A stretch of DNA of 37,116 nt from a virus: positions 1 through 37,116 of the IMG/VR virus record IMGVR_UViG_3300007734_000647; one strand, 5' to 3'. This document shows, one piece after another, positions 1 to 37,116 of this stretch. Position numbers and translations under genes: made by a program. Numbering within the stretch: position 1 is the stretch's first letter; every line of letters starts with the position of its first letter. A model generated the notes under the pieces. The model worked only from the letters and a program-made list of their open reading frames with translations, did not search any database and was not told where the DNA came from.

Positions 1-23
1 GCTCCAAGCTACAGGCTATGTAG
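1..23 (+). CDS. 3' end of an Ala/Trp-rich helical protein gene (partial)
   Basis: Only the last codons are present, reading SKLQAM and then TAG at 21-23. The bases are identical to the end of the complete gene at 35146-35631, so this is the tail of a paralogue whose body lies outside the window. It shows that at least one more copy of this family sits upstream of the window start. Confidence 0.6.
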
Positions 24-127: not shown

Positions 128-444
128 GCACCCTAGATCACCCCGTCCACAGTTTCCGCCCGGCCGACCTCATCGCAACCCCCTACAAGCGCTACAGAGT
201 CCCCTAGCTAATCCCCTGTCTGCTGACGATGGAGGGGGCGACCTTGACTGCTACGGATCCGCTAGAGATATTGGCCGGTGATCGCGCCAGTGAACCGCCA
301 ATCGAAAAAAGTTTCGGCCCGCAAACCCCGCTACAGAGTCAGAAAAGTAGTCTTTAGGAAACTTTTATGCGAAAAGGGGTTGACAGCTTGGGGGGGTGTC
401 TGTATCGTCCGTTTGGTAAAGTCAATCAACCAGAAAGTACGAAT
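128..444 (+). promoter_or_regulatory. Early regulatory region (left copy) with no convincing gene
   Basis: This stretch of about 300 bases has no believable coding frame and is a diverged copy of 35736-36051. It contains the element GCTACAGAGTC twice (191-201 and 330-340). It also holds an inverted repeat CTTTT-ATGCG-AAAAG at 362-376 just upstream of the promoter -35 box. The direct repeats and the palindrome are conserved, with changes, in the right copy, so they are candidate regulator binding sites. No regulator that would bind them can be named. Confidence 0.5.
380..408 (+). promoter_or_regulatory. Sigma70-type early promoter
   Basis: A consensus -35 TTGACA (380-385) is followed after 17 bases by TATCGT (403-408), a four-of-six match to the -10 box. 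The start of transcription would fall near 415, upstream of the first complete gene at 445. The paralogous site at 35986-36013 has a weaker TTGAAA. The inverted repeat at 362-376 ends four bases before the -35 box and could be an operator. Confidence 0.65.
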
Positions 445-968: not shown

Positions 969-1014
969 ATCGGCGGCCACCAGGGGCTTGACCGGGTTCG
1001 ATCCCCGCGCCGAT
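969..1014 (+). repeat. tRNA-like intergenic element A (no anticodon arm)
   Basis: ATCGGCG (969-975) pairs over seven bases with CGCCGAT (1008-1014), like an acceptor stem. CGGG-TTCGATC-CCCG (993-1007) forms a T arm with the canonical seven-base T loop and stacks directly on the acceptor strand. Between them is only a short hairpin (GCC, loop ACCAGG, GGC at 976-987). There is no anticodon arm and no encoded CCA. The element lies between the acidic gene and the ArdC gene. Confidence 0.7.
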
Positions 1015-1054
1015 ATTCGTACCTAAACAACAATACAGAAAGCAGGTGAGTAGG

Positions 1055-1930
1055 ATGGCAAGTAAAACTGCTAGAAAAGACGTCTATCAGATCGTGACAG
1101 ATACAATCATCGAATCACTAGAACGGGGTGTAGTTCCATGGCGTCGGCCATGGGCGCCAACACTAGATGGGGTAGGTCATCGCAACCTAGTGTCTAAAAA
1201 GGGGTACCGTGGAATCAATCCGTTCATTCTTGAAGCAACTGCGCAGGCTAACGATTGGAACGATCCCTACTGGCTCACCTATAAACAAGCCGAAGGTCTA
1301 GGTGGTCAAGTCCGGGCCGGATCAACATCTACCCTAGTAACTTTTTGGAAGACGTTCAAGATAGAAGGTAAAAACGGGGAAAAAGATAAGACAATCCCGA
1401 CGCTTAGGTACTTTCGTGTCTTCAATATCGCCCAAGTTGATGGGATAGACTGTCCGACAGTGGAAAACCTCTCACCGATGGAACCGATTGAAGCCGCAGA
1501 CATCATAGTCAAGGGCTATGCGATGGTGACTAAACACGGGGGAGACTCTGCGCACTACTCACCGGGCGACGATACCGTCACTATGCCGATTGGAGAGTCT
1601 TTTATTAGTCCATCGAACTACTACGCAACGTGGTTCCATGAGCTAGGCCATTCGACGGGCCATAAGACACGTCTAGACCGATTCTCTAAAGACCCGTCAC
1701 AATCACGATTCGGCTCAGAGAACTACAGCAGGGAAGAGCTCTGCGCAGAAATGACAGCAGCGATGCTCTGCGGGATAGCGGGAATATCAGAGCAGACTAT
1801 CGAATCTTCTGCGAGCTATATCGCTAACTGGCTCACTAGACTACAGAATGACCCTAAGCTAGTCATGCAGGCCGCTGGCAAGGCCCAGAAAGCAGCAGAC
1901 CTCATACTGGGCAGGACATACGATAACTAG
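1055..1930 (+). CDS. ardC: ArdC-like antirestriction protein with zincin metalloprotease domain
   Basis: This 291-residue protein has the two-part layout of the ArdC family. An N-terminal ssDNA-binding-type domain (about residues 1-125, with WRRPW, KGYRGINPF and WLTYKQ) is followed by a metalloprotease-like domain with HELGHSTGH near residues 195-203 and a downstream EELCAEM helix that can supply the third zinc ligand. Family members on plasmids and phages protect incoming DNA from host restriction. The ATG at 1055 follows AAAGCAGGTGAG, a good match to the 16S 3' end; an in-frame GTG at 1046 would add three residues. tRNA-like elements flank the gene on both sides. Family assignment is strong, but activity in this phage is inferred. 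Confidence 0.9.
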   Translation: MASKTARKDVYQIVTDTIIESLERGVVPWRRPWAPTLDGVGHRNLVSKKGYRGINPFILEATAQANDWNDPYWLTYKQAEGLGGQVRAGSTSTLVTFWKTFKIEGKNGEKDKTIPTLRYFRVFNIAQVDGIDCPTVENLSPMEPIEAADIIVKGYAMVTKHGGDSAHYSPGDDTVTMPIGESFISPSNYYATWFHELGHSTGHKTRLDRFSKDPSQSRFGSENYSREELCAEMTAAMLCGIAGISEQTIESSASYIANWLTRLQNDPKLVMQAAGKAQKAADLILGRTYDN

Positions 1931-1937
1931 AAACACA

Positions 1938-1995
1938 ATCGGCGAACCTCCCGGACGGCGGGAGGGGAAGACCGGGTTCGAGTCCCAGCGCCGAC
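1938..1995 (+). repeat. tRNA-like intergenic element B (no anticodon arm)
   Basis: TCGGCG (1939-1944) pairs with CGCCGA (1989-1994). CCGGG-TTCGAGT-CCCAG (1972-1988) is a T arm with one mismatch, placed exactly as in a tRNA (five-base stem, seven-base loop, then acceptor strand). After a two-base linker comes a perfect seven-base-pair hairpin CCTCCCG/CGGGAGG (1947-1965, loop GACGG) where the D and anticodon arms would be. It lies between the ArdC gene and an Ala-rich gene. Confidence 0.75.
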
Positions 1996-2037
1996 CTTGT
2001 ACCTAATAATCAATCAATACAGAACGGATGTGAGCAG

Positions 2038-2223
2038 ATGACTGATCTAGAAAAACTCTGGCAGGCGGCGCATGAGGCGGCGTGGGAGGCGCGGAAGGCG
2101 CAGGAGGCGTGGAGGAAGGCGTGGAAGGCGCACGCGGCGAACGAGGCGCACGCGGCGAACGAGGCGCGGAAGGCGGCGCGGGAGGCGGCGAACGAGGCGG
2201 AGGACGCGGCAGCGGCTAGCTAA
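2038..2223 (+). CDS. Ala/Glu/Lys-rich helical protein with Trp spacing
   Basis: The 61-residue protein is built almost entirely from Ala, Glu, Lys and Arg with spaced Trp (LWQAAHEAAWEARKAQEAW), predicted as one long helix. It shares the MTDL start and composition with the gene at 35146-35631. An exact 18-base tandem repeat (2128-2163) encodes HAANEA twice, so slippage or unequal exchange has acted here. The purine-rich coding strand also gives long open frames on the other strand, which I regard as shadows. SD-like GATGTGAGCAG precedes ATG 2038. Function unknown. Confidence 0.65.
   Translation: MTDLEKLWQAAHEAAWEARKAQEAWRKAWKAHAANEAHAANEARKAAREAANEAEDAAAAS
2128..2163 (+). repeat. 18-bp exact tandem repeat in the Ala-rich gene
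   Basis: Two adjacent identical copies of an 18-base unit beginning GCGCACGCGGCG encode ARG/LYS-free hexapeptides of Ala, His, Asn and Glu. The repeat keeps the reading frame. It is direct evidence of recent repeat expansion in this family. Confidence 0.85.
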
Positions 2224-2229
2224 CACACA

Positions 2230-2286
2230 ATCGGCGAGCCTCCCGGGTGGCGGGAGGGGAAGACCGGGTTCGACTCCCGCGCCGAC
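2230..2286 (+). repeat. tRNA-like intergenic element C (no anticodon arm)
   Basis: The plan is the same as in element B: TCGGCG (2231-2236) pairs with CGCCGA (2280-2285), and the T arm CGGG-TTCGACT-CCCG lies at 2265-2279. A perfect seven-base-pair hairpin CCTCCCG/CGGGAGG (2239-2257) has the loop GGTGG, which differs from the loop of B, while linker GGAAGA is identical. Conserved stems with changed loops argue that the fold is what is selected. Confidence 0.75.
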
Positions 2287-2325: not shown

Positions 2326-2610
2326 ATGACATACCCTACCGAAGAAGTTACGGTTTATGTAAAGCAGAACGGCAGCCAACGACTGCTTAGAGAATATAGT
2401 CCGATAACACTACTCCAGTGGTCACAGATGACGTTAGAGAGGCTAGACCACAACGGCGAATATTGGCACCTTACTAATGCGAATAGTGAGGAGATGATCG
2501 ACGCGGCGATCGAGTTAGAATGTAATGCTAGTGCTAGCTATGTCGGTTGGACTAGCTTCGCGCCGACCGTGCACCTAATAATCAACTACAACCAGGAAGC
2601 AGGTGAGTAG
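2326..2610 (+). CDS. Hypothetical early protein, 94 aa
   Basis: ATG 2326 follows AAAGCAGGTGAGTAGA, and an in-frame GTG at 2317 would add three residues. The protein starts MTYPTEEVTVYVKQNG and has mixed beta-strand-like and helical stretches with no domain I recognise. Its last roughly 17 codons run through a remnant of the intergenic repeat (CGCCGACCGTGCACCTAATAA) and stop within the ribosome binding region of the next gene. The C-terminus is thus made of former spacer DNA. Confidence 0.6.
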   Translation: MTYPTEEVTVYVKQNGSQRLLREYSPITLLQWSQMTLERLDHNGEYWHLTNANSEEMIDAAIELECNASASYVGWTSFAPTVHLIINYNQEAGE

Positions 2611-2611
2611 C
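2560..2611 (+). repeat. Remnant of the intergenic element inside a coding sequence
   Basis: Bases 2561-2567 (CGCCGAC) and the following GTGCACCTAATAATCAAC match the 3' half of elements B and D plus their common downstream leader, ending in AAGCAGGTGAGTAGC before ATG 2612. The 5' half is not recognisable apart from GTCGG at 2542-2546. The preceding reading frame passes straight through it. Confidence 0.55.
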
Positions 2612-3013: not shown

Positions 3014-3292
3014 ATGGACATTAAGGAACTACGCAGGAACTACGCAGTGGCAGAAGCTAGGCTAATCGTCGAAGATCAGATTCTATTCTCAGTAGAAGAA
3101 GCTCTGGCGGAGGCATGGAACTCGGCGGAGACAGCAGAGGAGGCAGGACGCGAAGAAGCAGAGGAGGCATGGAACATCGCTTCTGATCTAGTGGCAGTAG
3201 CAGAAGAAGCACGCGAGGCAGCGTTCGTGATCGCCGATGAAGCGGCTGAGGCTCTGAATGAGGCTGAGGATGAGATAGGAGAGGCAGCATGA
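3014..3292 (+). CDS. Acidic Ala/Glu-rich helical protein
   Basis: A clear ribosome binding site (ACAGGAGAAACAGA) precedes ATG 3014. The 92-residue protein is predicted as nearly all helix, with repeats such as EEALAEAWN, AEEAGREEAEEAWN and VAEEAREAAF, and is strongly acidic. It is the third member of the EAW-repeat family in this cluster. Its stop overlaps the following gene by ATGA (3289-3292). About 40 bases of spacer upstream may hold a promoter, but I see no good -35/-10 pair. Function unknown. Confidence 0.7.
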   Translation: MDIKELRRNYAVAEARLIVEDQILFSVEEALAEAWNSAETAEEAGREEAEEAWNIASDLVAVAEEAREAAFVIADEAAEALNEAEDEIGEAA

Positions 3293-23613: not shown

Positions 23614-24242
23614 GTTGCGGACTCATACGTTCCCGTAATGCTCAGGGTATCTGAAGTAGCCAGTGTGTAGGGGGCAGTATTAGTAAAAAGCGCACCCCCG
23701 CTTGGAGCGCGTACTACAAAAGTATTGCTAGCATTATCGTGGGAAGCAAAGTAAGTTTCTCTAACGTTAGCGCTAGAGTCAAAAATAATACAAGGACCAG
23801 AACTTGAAGTACTAAGAGTTGTTGCACTAGGGGGAACTGGATAACCAAAAGTGTAGGTACCGCTACCATAGTTTGTGCTACCAAACACGATGTGCATACG
23901 AAATGTTACTAGCCTACCAACTTTACTATATGCACATGAAAGCGTATGACTTGCAAGGGTCGGATTACTAGTACTACCAGTCCATGTGGGAGTGTAAGAA
24001 GTCCACGCACCAAAGTTGCCAACAGCAGCAGCCAGCTTTGCAGCCGTCACGTTAGCATCGAGGATCTTGGCTGTAGTAACGGCGTTAGCTGCGATCTGTG
24101 TTGCTGTAATAGCGCTAGCACTAATCTGAGCCGTATCAATAGTGTTGACCGAAGCCTGAATAGATGCTAGGTTTGTATTAAGATCGTTTACGTTCTCTGG
24201 CGTACCAGCGGTAAGTGCTACTGTATATGTAAGTGGTGCCAT
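23610..24242 (-). CDS. Tail fibre-like protein, 210 aa
   Basis: The protein starts MAPLTYTVALTAGTPENVND and has one block of fibre-shaft repeats (ISASAITATQIAANAVTTAK). A beta-rich C-terminal domain follows with WTSYTPTWTGSTSNPTLASH and RLVTFRMHIVFGSTNYGSG, a layout seen in many phage fibre tips. It lies between the propeller-like tail protein and the second fibre-like protein. Likely a receptor-binding or adaptor component. Confidence 0.7.
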   Translation of the reverse strand: MAPLTYTVALTAGTPENVNDLNTNLASIQASVNTIDTAQISASAITATQIAANAVTTAKILDANVTAAKLAAAVGNFGAWTSYTPTWTGSTSNPTLASHTLSCAYSKVGRLVTFRMHIVFGSTNYGSGTYTFGYPVPPSATTLSTSSSGPCIIFDSSANVRETYFASHDNASNTFVVRAPSGGALFTNTAPYTLATSDTLSITGTYESAT

Positions 24243-24244
24243 TT

Positions 24245-25879
24245 CTATATTCCTTGTTCGATGCTTGGGACTCGTGTTTCGCGCATGTTGTAGCCAATCC
24301 TAGTAATAGTAAAAGAGTTATCAGAGCTTGCTGTTAGTAGTCCAGTTAGGGTCATAGCAAATACTGTTCCACGCTTTGCCTCTCTAACCATCAGTACAGA
24401 TAAGTTTGTTCCGCTTCCCCATACATCGTTTGAGTCGCTTCCGTCTGCCCACAAATCGCTTGGGTTGGTTCCATCTCCCCAGAGATCTGGCGTAGGGTAT
24501 GATATTTGTTGTGTGGAAGCGCCAGCGTAATCTACTCCAGTTCCAAACTTGAGTTTCCCGGTTCCCCAGAGCTTAGTCTCTCTTAGTGTTTTAACACTAG
24601 GACTGCCAAGGTTAAACCAACCAGAAACCCACTTAGTTGTTATTGCCGATCCAGCGGTACTAGAAATCAACGTACAGCCGTCTGTTTTATACGAGCTTCC
24701 TAGAACTGCGATTTTAGCAGATGTTTGATGAGAAAAGAATAGGCTTGGAATTAATGAGGAACCAAAGGAAGTAGAACAAACACCACCCATAGGTATGTCC
24801 CAGACTGACCACCACTTGTTGCGAAGGTCATAGACAAGCACAAGGTTGTTAGTTATGCTTCCACCAGTAGGGACGGCAATGTATAGCTTCTCTTGGTGCC
24901 AAGTCATAGACGAAGCACTGACAGCAGCTTGGTTTAACTTAGAAGATGAAAAGAACTGCGCTGATGTATTGTTAAAGAATGGATCAATCATATCTGATAC
25001 TTGTACCGGCGCTCCTCCGGTGGTCTTATAAATACCTTGAGCAGACATAAAGTACAGACCATCTGAACCAACTGCTACACAGTCCTTACCAAGAGCGCCA
25101 ACGCCAGTGTCTATTGTTCTGTAGTTAAAGACAACGGCAGTACCAGATTGATTAAGGCTTTCTCCATACATTACAAAAAACTTAGTCTTCTTAAATATGA
25201 ATACTGATTCACCCCAAGAAACAATTGCGGTTATTGGTTCACCATCTCCGGGAGAAAGCGATAAGCTATTAGCAGTAAGCCAAGTTTCTGGTGCATTAAC
25301 TTCACTAAAGTAAACCGTTGAAGGGTTTGTTATAGCAGCATTAGGACCATCTACTACCCCAACATATCCACCAGCTACAAGTCTATTAGTTACTGGCGTA
25401 ACTTCTAATAGGCTTGCTAGTGGCATTGCAAGTCCCGGTACGGCATTAACTGTTGCGGTAGGGGCAGCAAAGGTTGCTGTTGACGGAGTATATCTTCCTA
25501 TGGTTGTTGTACCATCGCCAAAGTAAACGTTGTTTACCCCAGCAATACCAAAGCGTACAAAGTTCCATCTGCTCGCAGCCGTAGCGCCAACTCTGGCATA
25601 CGGAACAGATAAAGCATTAGCGCTGTCCATTGTCTGTAGGTTTGCGCCAGCACCAATAATAAGCGTTATACCACTAGATCCAACTGGATGAACGGTTTGT
25701 GGATTGGCAGCAGTTGCGGCGCTGGCAAACGCATATCCAGAACGTTGAGCTATTGCCCCTCGCGCAGTAAAATCAACGTTTAAAACGTCAACACATTGCG
25801 TTGGATCTGTAGCATCAGGCTGATCTCGTAGATTGAGTCCTCCGTGAAAGCTAGAGAACTCTACCGATCTATAAGCCAT
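24245..25879 (-). CDS. Propeller-like tail protein (tubular B / tail stopper type)
   Basis: The 544-residue protein begins MAYRSVEFSSFHGGLNLRDQ and goes on with CVDVLNVDFTARGAIAQRSG. This opening is characteristic of podovirus tail proteins with a beta-propeller that form the tail tube or its plug. Repeated short beta units (NNVYFGDGTTTIGRYT, SDGLYFMSAQGIYKTTGG) support a propeller. It is TAATG-coupled to the adaptor gene, the same order as tubular A then B in T7-like phages. Confidence 0.75.
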   Translation of the reverse strand: MAYRSVEFSSFHGGLNLRDQPDATDPTQCVDVLNVDFTARGAIAQRSGYAFASAATAANPQTVHPVGSSGITLIIGAGANLQTMDSANALSVPYARVGATAASRWNFVRFGIAGVNNVYFGDGTTTIGRYTPSTATFAAPTATVNAVPGLAMPLASLLEVTPVTNRLVAGGYVGVVDGPNAAITNPSTVYFSEVNAPETWLTANSLSLSPGDGEPITAIVSWGESVFIFKKTKFFVMYGESLNQSGTAVVFNYRTIDTGVGALGKDCVAVGSDGLYFMSAQGIYKTTGGAPVQVSDMIDPFFNNTSAQFFSSSKLNQAAVSASSMTWHQEKLYIAVPTGGSITNNLVLVYDLRNKWWSVWDIPMGGVCSTSFGSSLIPSLFFSHQTSAKIAVLGSSYKTDGCTLISSTAGSAITTKWVSGWFNLGSPSVKTLRETKLWGTGKLKFGTGVDYAGASTQQISYPTPDLWGDGTNPSDLWADGSDSNDVWGSGTNLSVLMVREAKRGTVFAMTLTGLLTASSDNSFTITRIGYNMRETRVPSIEQGI

Positions 25880-35735: not shown

Positions 35736-36051
35736 CCGCCACCGATCACCCTGCCCATAGTTTCCCTAGCCGACCTCATCGCAACCCCTTACAGAGCCCT
35801 ACAGAGTCCCCTAGCTAATCCCCCTACCTACTAGCCATCGAAGGGGTGAACTTGACCGCTACGGATCCGCTAGGTATTGCCCGGTGATCTGCCCAGTTAG
35901 CTACCAATCAAAAAAACTTTCGGCCCGCAATCCTCGCTACAGAGCCAGAAAAGTAGTCTTTATGAAACTTTTATGCGAAAAGGGGTTGAAAGTTTTGGGG
36001 TGATCTGTAATCATCGTTTCAACAAGTCAACCAGAAAGGACGGTGAGTAGC
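35736..36051 (+). promoter_or_regulatory. Early regulatory region (right copy) with no gene
   Basis: A diverged copy of 128-444 with no coding frame. It keeps CTACAGAGTC, GCTACAGAGCC, the ACGGATCCGCTAG block and the inverted repeat CTTTT-ATGCG-AAAAG (35968-35982). A promoter with TTGAAA (35986-35991), 16 bases and TAATCA (36008-36013) follows. It leads into AGAAAGGACGGTGAGTAGC before ATG 36052. Conservation of the palindrome beside both promoters supports a regulatory role. Confidence 0.5.
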
Positions 36052-36300: not shown

Positions 36301-36612
36301 ATGAGTACAGAGAAAGTAACACTTTACAGTGCCTGCGAAGAGATGCGAGAGGATGCGCGAGAGACTTTCGCAGAAGATCCGCACATCGAAGATCCATTCC
36401 AACGCGCCAGTGAGGCAGCAGAGGGGAGCGAGAACGTCATATATACGTGGCGCGCTATTGCGATTTATGCCGACTCACCTGGCGACGTTGGCGAGTATGA
36501 GGACGAATACTGTGGCGATGGCGACCTTGCCGACCGGATCACGTATTGCGTCTTCCGTGCGCTAGTGACGGCATGGTGCGATGAATGGGGAGAGCTAGAG
36601 GGATCAAACTAA
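36301..36612 (+). CDS. Very acidic early protein, paralogue of 653-961
   Basis: The 103-residue protein is collinear with its paralogue; both have ENVIYTWRA, GEYEDEYCGDGDL and DRITYCV. Differences are concentrated around residues 32-46 and at the C-terminus. Synonymous changes are plentiful, so the protein has been kept under selection since duplication. Strong negative charge suggests a DNA-mimic or protein-binding inhibitor; this is inference. ACGGTGACGAC precedes ATG 36301, and a tRNA-like element follows. Confidence 0.75.
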   Translation: MSTEKVTLYSACEEMREDARETFAEDPHIEDPFQRASEAAEGSENVIYTWRAIAIYADSPGDVGEYEDEYCGDGDLADRITYCVFRALVTAWCDEWGELEGSN

Positions 36613-36617
36613 CCACA

Positions 36618-36677
36618 ATCGGCGAGCTTCCCGGCAGGTGAGGGAGGGGTGTACCGGGTTCAACTCCCGGCGCCGAC
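36618..36677 (+). repeat. tRNA-like intergenic element D (no anticodon arm)
   Basis: TCGGCG (36619-36624) pairs with CGCCGA (36671-36676), and the T arm CCGGG-TTCAACT-CCCGG (36654-36670) is perfect at five base pairs. A CTTCCC/GGGAGG hairpin (36627-36647) contains GGCAGG in its loop. The two-base and six-base linkers match elements B and C. This is the most tRNA-like T arm of the set. Confidence 0.75.
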
Positions 36678-36715
36678 CTTGTACCTAAACAACAATCAGA
36701 AGGGACGGTGACGGG

Positions 36716-37089: not shown

Positions 37090-37116
37090 ATCGGCGACCC
37101 TCCCGGCAGGTGGGGG
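37090..37116 (+). repeat. tRNA-like intergenic element E, cut by the window end
   Basis: ATCGGCG (37090-37096) followed by ACCCTCCCGGCAGGTGGGGG reproduces the first half of elements B to D at the same distance after a stop codon. The T arm and 3' acceptor strand fall outside the window. Confidence 0.6.

What the first reader, a model, noticed from the sequence alone, without database searches (positions are those of the whole stretch)
969..2286. Repeated tRNA-like separators without an anticodon arm between early genes
Elements at 969-1014, 1938-1995, 2230-2286 and 36618-36677, plus a cut copy at 37090 and a remnant at 2560, share one plan. They have a 6-7 bp acceptor-like stem TCGGCG/CGCCGA, a canonical T arm (TTCRANY loop) directly on it, and one variable hairpin in place of the D and anticodon arms. 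Stems are kept while loops and hairpin sequences change. RNase P is known to cleave minimal substrates made of an acceptor stem and T arm, so these may be built-in processing sites that cut the early polycistronic RNA into single-gene messages or protect its ends. Cassette exchange through the repeats is another possibility.
Basis: partly seen in the sequence, partly recalled or inferred. Interest (0 to 1): 0.85.

Follow-up and report, generated by a model that had tools for sequence, protein, structure and literature searches.

The report
Anticodon-less tRNA mimics between phage genes
This phage places small RNA folds that copy only the end and 'T arm' of a transfer RNA between its early genes, and many other phages of soil bacteria turn out to do the same, up to 17 times per genome, most likely as built-in cutting or capping signals for their messages.

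Summary
Observation confirmed. Four full tRNA-like elements (969-1014, 1938-1995, 2230-2286, 36618-36677) and one cut by the contig end (37090) lie 6-8 nt after a stop codon and 39-43 nt before the next ATG, all on the coding strand. They have an acceptor-like stem, one hairpin and a T arm, with no anticodon arm. ARAGORN finds no tRNA and Rfam no family; shuffles give about 0.1 such structures per 37 kb.

The window copies alone show no compensatory changes, but relatives settle the structure. Gordonia phage VanLee has one such element in 16 of 17 long gaps of its leftward operon, plus one elsewhere. Across 25 Gordonia-phage elements, unconstrained folding returns a 6+6 = 12-bp acceptor/T helix with double changes in 7 of 12 pairs. 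About 80 IMG/VR contigs and many Actinomycetota genomes carry the same form. In 85 of 87 matches the T-loop-to-end distance is exactly 12 nt, the tRNA ruler that RNase P measures. In two related podoviruses, a real tRNA-Ile and an anticodon-less element occupy the same site before orn.

Best reading: RNase P-type punctuation of polycistronic mRNA, leaving a folded 5' cap. Cleavage is untested; the window copies are a divergent variant (10-11 bp, no RCCA).

The parts
969..1014 (+). tRNA-like element 1: acceptor 969-975/1008-1014 (7 bp, A-U outermost), short hairpin, T stem 993-996/1004-1007, T loop 997-1003 TTCGATC; follows the stop at 959-961, precedes ardC
1938..1995 (+). tRNA-like element 2: acceptor 1939-1944/1989-1994, 7-bp hairpin CCTCCCG/CGGGAGG, T stem 1972-1976/1984-1988 (one C.A mismatch), T loop 1977-1983 TTCGAGT
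2230..2286 (+). tRNA-like element 3: acceptor 2231-2236/2280-2285, 7-bp hairpin, T stem 2265-2268/2276-2279, T loop 2269-2275 TTCGACT
36618..36677 (+). tRNA-like element 4: acceptor 36619-36624/36671-36676, 6-bp hairpin, T stem 36654-36658/36666-36670 (5 bp), T loop 36659-36665 TTCAACT
37090..37116 (+). tRNA-like element 5, 5' half only, cut by the contig end
   Evidence: 25.9 bits, cut at 3'
2561..2611 (+). remnant: acceptor 3' strand CGCCGA plus the element-associated leader up to the ATG at 2612, T loop lost; the upstream ORF reads through it
1015..1054 (+). leader after element 1 (GTACCTAA..., SD-like AGCAGGTGAG) up to the ATG at 1055; similar leaders at 1995-2037, 2286-2325, 36677-36715
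1055..1930 (+). ArdC-like anti-restriction protein, the gene between elements 1 and 2
   Evidence: phrog_7245, 3e-76; PF08401, PF18818
653..961 (+). early gene followed by element 1; paralogue of 36301-36612, which is followed by element 4
   Evidence: sequence
36301..36612 (+). early gene followed by element 4
380..408 (+). promoter-like TTGACA-17-TATCGT at the head of the left early operon; the same block is repeated near 35910-36020

Best explanation
These are RNA elements that mimic the acceptor stem plus T arm of a tRNA, with the D and anticodon region cut down to one hairpin. Each sits between the stop codon of one gene and the leader of the next in a presumably co-transcribed operon. 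Most likely the host's RNase P recognises the T loop and the stacked acceptor/T helix and cuts 5' of the acceptor. That would split the polycistronic RNA just after the upstream stop codon and leave each downstream message with a folded, recessed 5' end that resists 5' exonucleolytic or 5'-monophosphate-dependent decay; a 3' cut may sometimes follow. Shown: structure, strand, placement, covariation in relatives, the 12-nt ruler in relatives, exchange with a real tRNA at one site. Inferred: co-transcription, recognition by RNase P, the cut, 5' protection, and that the divergent window copies behave like the relatives.
For: Placement: 6-8 nt after a stop and 39-43 nt before an SD-led ATG in the window; median 8 and 32 nt in IMG/VR matches; 16 of 17 gaps over 40 nt in the VanLee leftward operon; orientation follows the gene in Morgana and Cafasso. 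Structure: RNAalifold on a plain MAFFT alignment of 25 Gordonia-phage copies gives acceptor + T arm, 7 of 12 pairs with double changes, covariation 0.519 against 0.137 shuffled and at most 0.118 slid; T-stem pairs left free by the pattern in 87 IMG/VR matches are 87% paired against 44% shuffled. Ruler: 85 of 87 have exactly 12 nt from T loop to acceptor end where 12-14 were allowed. G1-C72 25/25; R73 and C74 14/14 in VanLee copies. A real tRNA-Ile and an anticodon-less element occupy the same place between homologous genes before orn. Acceptor/T-arm model RNAs are cut by bacterial RNase P and 12 bp acts as a ruler (PMC11143913). No terminator signature.
Against: No RNA data of any kind. Window copies: no compensatory change, helix 10-11 bp not 12, U1-A72, no RCCA. 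Covariance models from window and Gordonia copies do not recognise each other, so kinship rests on shared plan and placement. G-U versus A-C mismatches show no strand bias (6 to 7), so an RNA-strand signature is not independently shown. In Nonomuraea and Streptomyces some copies lie by genes not obviously of phages.
Confidence: 0.55

Rival explanations
1. Uncut 5' UTR element: the fold stays in the polycistronic or individually initiated mRNA and acts as a stability or translation element, for example as a roadblock to decay or a binding site for T-arm-binding enzymes (TruB, TrmA) or a phage protein.
For: Constant 30-50 nt spacing to an SD-led start codon; several Gordonia-phage leaders carry a second hairpin and a conserved GGCACCCAAC before the SD; the window helix is shorter than the RNase P ruler.
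Against: Does not explain the exact 12-nt ruler, invariant G1-C72 and R73-C74 in relatives, nor why a genuine tRNA can take the same place.
Confidence: 0.25
2. DNA-level cassette boundary: the repeats are kept because they promote exchange of early genes by homologous or site-specific recombination; the RNA fold is incidental.
For: Morgana gp154 plus leader is a precise presence/absence cassette relative to Cafasso with the crossover in the 3' half of two elements; paralogous genes at 653 and 36301 are each followed by an element but then by different genes; half an element at 2561.
Against: T stems drift freely while pairing is kept, which lowers the sequence identity that recombination needs; asymmetric T loop and strand always follow the gene; recombination between any repeats in a mosaic phage would leave the same trace.
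Confidence: 0.1
3. tRNA relics: decayed copies of a phage tRNA spread as passengers between genes, with no function.
For: Related podoviruses carry dispersed true tRNAs between early genes.
Against: Covariation and an exact ruler across many phages show selection on the acceptor/T helix; one element in nearly every gap of an operon.
Confidence: 0.05
4. Transcription attenuator or terminator, or a regulated leader, responding to a phage or host factor.
For: GC-rich hairpins in 5' leaders.
Against: No U run; no terminator-like site called at any of the left-operon elements; the same fold precedes nearly every gene block of an operon; a promoter-like call overlaps element 1 only.
Confidence: 0.05

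Closest known systems
tRNA punctuation of mitochondrial transcripts and plant mitochondrial t-elements (tRNA-like structure cut by PRORP; PMC4919922)
   Same: tRNA or tRNA-like folds between coding sequences that act as cutting sites giving mRNA ends
   Different: Mitochondrial systems with protein-only or other RNase P; here short repeated anticodon-less folds in phage operons, cutting not shown
mascRNA/menRNA (Rfam RF01684)
   Same: Reduced tRNA-like fold embedded in a longer RNA, cut by RNase P and RNase Z; best weak Rfam hit of the window copies (16.7-19.0 bits)
   Different: Far below the gathering score of 42.5; animal lncRNA 3' ends; single copy
RNase P processing in phage RNAs: C4 antisense RNA precursor of phages P1/P7 (cited in PMC11143913)
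   Same: Phage RNA with a fold recognised by host RNase P
   Different: One regulatory RNA, not repeated mRNA separators
SAS/ESAS repeats of cluster K mycobacteriophages and cluster EF Microbacterium phages (PMC3203893, PMC7302621)
   Same: Repeated elements upstream of start codons in the non-structural half of actinophage genomes, function unknown
   Different: 17-bp inverted repeats with a 4-13 bp spacer next to a 13-bp SAS; no T loop; 20 kb of Anaya, a phage with ESAS, gives no hit to the descriptor
YrlA, Ro-associated tRNA-mimicking Y RNA (RF02553)
   Same: tRNA mimic with T and D arms; VanLee itself carries a YrlA-like RNA next to a Ro gene
   Different: A separate longer ncRNA beside the Ro gene, not an mRNA separator; no hit in the window
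tmRNA tRNA-like domain
   Same: Acceptor + T arm without an anticodon arm, RNase P processed (established knowledge)
   Different: No alanine-acceptor G3-U70, no CCA, no tag ORF

Membership tests
tRNA | cloverleaf with anticodon arm | tested here: not met
   ARAGORN 0 genes in the window; 17-29 nt between acceptor 5' strand and T stem
tRNA | T arm with T loop TTCRANN | tested here: met
   All four copies
Actinophage anticodon-less family (model R2 from VanLee, Morgana, Cafasso) | match to the covariance model | tested here: not met
   Only T-arm fragments at the elements, at most 15.9 bits, E 0.24 or worse
Actinophage anticodon-less family | acceptor stem, one short hairpin or loop, T arm, no anticodon arm | tested here: met
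Actinophage anticodon-less family | between a stop codon and the SD/ATG of the next gene, on the coding strand | tested here: met
   6-8 nt and 39-43 nt; relatives
Actinophage anticodon-less family | 12 nt from T loop to acceptor end | tested here: not met
   Window 10-11 (sequence); relatives 85 of 87 at 12
mascRNA-menRNA RF01684 | gathering score 42.5 bits | tested here: not met
   16.7-19.0 bits
Any Rfam 15 family | gathering score | tested here: not met
   Window none; VanLee, Morgana, Cafasso and two IMG/VR loci none
RNase P substrate | stacked acceptor/T helix with T loop | tested here: met
RNase P substrate | 3' RCCA motif | tested here: not met
   Window: after the acceptor UAUU, CCUU, CAUU, CCUU; Gordonia copies have R73-C74 but G75
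RNase P substrate | cleavage at the 5' edge | not testable with these tools
   needs RNA end mapping or in vitro assay
ESAS (cluster K) | 17-bp inverted repeats, 4-13 bp spacer, next to a 13-bp SAS | tested here: not met
   Different plan; Anaya negative for the descriptor
Intrinsic terminator | GC hairpin followed by a U run | tested here: not met
   No site at elements 1-3
Integron attC | R'/R'' core boxes and integrase | not tested
   No core box seen by eye; no integrase search made

The most novel reading that the evidence does not exclude
A previously undescribed, widespread class of phage cis-acting RNA: anticodon-less tRNA mimics that punctuate operons of many actinophages (one in nearly every gap of some operons), hijacking host RNase P to convert early polycistronic RNA into separate messages with a tRNA-like 5' cap, interchangeable with true tRNAs.
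Probability: 0.45. Interest if true: 0.92.

Novelty: new variant of a known kind. Interest (0 to 1): 0.82.

Why it matters
tRNA punctuation is known from mitochondria, and RNase P cuts a few bacterial operon mRNAs, but I found no report (in the papers searched) of a phage that carries repeated minimal tRNA mimics as gene separators. If RNase P cuts them, this is a general way for phages to make individually stable early messages without extra promoters. The element is about 41 nt with clear determinants, so it could also serve as a compact RNA-processing part. Because VanLee and its Gordonia host are cultured, the idea is directly testable. The elements are not annotated in the phage records read here and no Rfam family covers them.

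Tried and rejected
DNA and protein searches for close relatives of the window found none: no DNA match in phages, terminase at best 43-44% in IMG/VR, no relative of the early genes except a 45% ArdC; so covariation had to come from more distant phages. The first pattern scan with the TCGGCG acceptor gave mostly true tRNAs and coding matches; L025 and L029 kept the plan but have no DNA relatives or flank a tRNA. Model R1 from the window copies found nothing outside the genome better than L025 and L029 at E 0.05-0.3. Wobble asymmetry (G-U versus A-C) as a test of RNA versus DNA selection was uninformative. The orn query in IMG/VR returned only the same contig. Cluster A phage Loser and Tsukamurella phage TIN3 have no such elements in the regions read. 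Non-actinobacterial hits of the genome scan were largely true tRNAs or poorly paired. Intrinsic terminator, ESAS, mascRNA, YrlA and tmRNA readings were considered and rejected (see membership test).

Full report
WHAT IS IN THE WINDOW. The window is a 37,116-base virus record, IMG/VR-type and treated as linear, probably a fragment. It is a podovirus-type phage whose large terminase matches phages of Arthrobacter, Microbacterium and Cellulosimicrobium at 25-28% and IMG/VR podoviruses at up to 43-44%. It has no close DNA relatives in the phage collection. Two rightward early operons lie at its two ends, each headed by a copy of the same promoter-like block (about 300-420 and 35,900-36,020).

Between early genes sit four complete elements and one cut by the contig end. 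Each has the invariant 6-bp acceptor TCGGCG/CGCCGA, one hairpin, and a T arm with loop TTCRANN stacked directly on the acceptor 3' strand. They begin 6-8 nt after the upstream stop codon and end 39-43 nt before the next ATG, whose leader carries a purine-rich SD. All are on the coding strand. A descriptor scan finds these four and nothing else on either strand; Markov shuffles give about 0.1 hits per 37 kb. ARAGORN calls no tRNA; Rfam has nothing at its thresholds, the nearest weak hit being mascRNA-menRNA at 16.7-19.0 bits against 42.5.

The window copies do not themselves prove the fold. They are near-identical repeats: 98% of the scored pair cells form standard pairs, but no pair has a two-sided change.

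RELATIVES SETTLE THE STRUCTURE. A terminase alignment brought in 80 podovirus loci. In one of them (L167, IMGVR_UViG_3300037882_001453) an element with wholly different sequence but the same plan (GGTGTAG/CTACACC acceptor, GTCTG/CAGAC hairpin, TGGG TTCAAGT CCCA T arm) lies 29 nt before an oligoribonuclease gene. In phage ctEqG8 the homologous gene (65% identical) is preceded, after a similar upstream gene end, by a genuine tRNA-Ile(TAT). A real tRNA and an anticodon-less element thus occupy the same slot. In these podoviruses tRNA genes are generally placed just before a gene: the tRNA-Lys and tRNA-Arg of ctEqG8 and L167 end 1 nt (by ARAGORN) before an ATG, and two tRNAs of L164 end 0 nt before it.

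A blastn of one element at a permissive threshold led to Gordonia phage VanLee, which proved decisive. Its leftward operon (about 71.5-82.7 kb) has 17 gaps over 40 nt between genes; 16 of them hold one anticodon-less element, on the operon strand, and a further copy precedes another leftward gene. Morgana and Cafasso have about ten each, and there the copies before + strand genes are on the + strand. On a plain MAFFT alignment of 25 copies, RNAalifold returns the acceptor (6 bp) and T stem (6 bp) without being told; 7 of 12 pairs have two-sided changes, 98% of cells pair, and the covariation score is 0.519 against 0.137 for shuffles and at most 0.118 for slid partners. The model from these copies finds a copy in Mycobacterium phage Superchunk (E 8e-4).

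A pattern scan for this form found 97 IMG/VR contigs. In the 87 distinct matches, the T-stem pairs not fixed by the pattern pair at 98, 94, 89 and 69% (slid controls 36-61%), overall 87% against a shuffled mean of 44% and maximum of 50%. The model recognises about 80 of these contigs at E <= 0.01. Named phages include Mycobacterium phage Sheen and Streptomyces phage Dagobah. In bacterial genomes, the well-paired matches that are not tRNA genes were in Actinomycetota (Streptomyces, Nonomuraea, Herbidospora, Nocardia, Gordonia, a Rhodococcus MAG with eight copies in 5.5 kb that includes an anti-restriction gene, as the window does); matches elsewhere were largely true tRNAs or less well paired. 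The loci tested match no Rfam family at threshold.

HOW IT MOST LIKELY WORKS. The pattern allowed 12, 13 or 14 nt between T loop and acceptor end; 85 of 87 matches have 12, the value in tRNA (acceptor 7 + T 5). In Gordonia copies this is 6+6. The first pair is G1-C72 in 25 of 25, and in VanLee the next bases are a purine and C in 14 of 14. The literature gives RNase P exactly these contacts: the T-stem-loop, a 12-bp acceptor/T ruler, stacking on G+1/C+72, and pairing with R73-C74-C75; acceptor/T-arm model hairpins are cut at the canonical site (PMC11143913). Placement just after the stop codon and well before the next SD fits a cut that frees the upstream message and leaves the element as a folded 5' end of the downstream one. 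Cutting, protection and any 3' cut are inference.

THE WINDOW COPIES ARE A VARIANT. They share plan, strand and placement, but the stacked helix is 10-11 bp, the first pair is U-A, no RCCA follows, and the two covariance models do not recognise each other. Common descent with the Gordonia-type family is not shown; convergent origin from phage tRNAs is equally possible.

RIVALS. An uncut leader element remains the main rival. Cassette exchange is real at least once: Cafasso lacks Morgana gp154 with the crossover inside two elements, but free drift of the T stems argues that recombination is not what is selected. A terminator is not supported. SAS/ESAS repeats of cluster K phages have the same placement but a different plan, and 20 kb of Anaya gives no hit to the descriptor.

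NOVELTY. In the literature searches made (library limited to open PMC papers) no report of such phage elements appeared. The kind of device (tRNA-like processing signal) is known from mitochondria and a few cellular RNAs; repeated anticodon-less mimics as phage gene separators appear new.

Noticed in passing
L035 24191-24263, 25596-25669; L167 8512-8585, 9236-9308; L164 13094-13167, 18946-19019: True tRNA genes end 0-1 nt before an ATG with an open reading frame, so tRNA 3' processing would yield a leaderless mRNA.
   Followed up: partly
L196 23320-23557 and CDS 23751-25367 (Gordonia phage VanLee): A YrlA-like RNA (47 bits, E 2.7e-9, below gathering) and tRNA-Arg lie upstream of a phage Ro-like protein gene.
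   Followed up: partly
window 300-420 and 35900-36020: Duplicated promoter-like block heads both early operons; genes 653-961 and 36301-36612 are paralogues.
   Followed up: partly
window 2038-2223, 2603-2866, 3014-3292: Small Ala/Glu-rich repetitive early ORFs of unknown function.
   Followed up: no
L198 8326-8757 versus L199 6829-6871: Morgana gp154 cassette is present or absent with the crossover inside the 3' half of two tRNA-like elements.
   Followed up: yes
L190 1463-1535 (Microbacterium phage RunningBrook): Annotated 'tRNA-OTHER', an odd tRNA-like structure 28 nt before the primase/polymerase gene; a related match has no annotation in phage ASegato.
   Followed up: no
L038 36158-36097 (-) (Microbacterium phage Shocker): Anticodon-poor tRNA-like element in the long gap before gene 46, 57 nt before its ATG.
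   Followed up: partly
L303 about 583-630 (halovirus HSTV-2): A similar acceptor/T-arm sequence (GACACCG...CGGTGTC) lies between genes 90 and 89 of an archaeal tailed virus and matches in several relatives.
   Followed up: no
L367 4108-5751, L372 5894-6192: Copies of the 41-nt element in Nonomuraea and Streptomyces contigs next to NUDIX and GGDEF genes, not clearly in a prophage.
   Followed up: no
L411 314-5856 (Rhodococcus MAG): Eight elements in 5.5 kb, all on +, in a region with a phage-type anti-restriction gene.
   Followed up: partly
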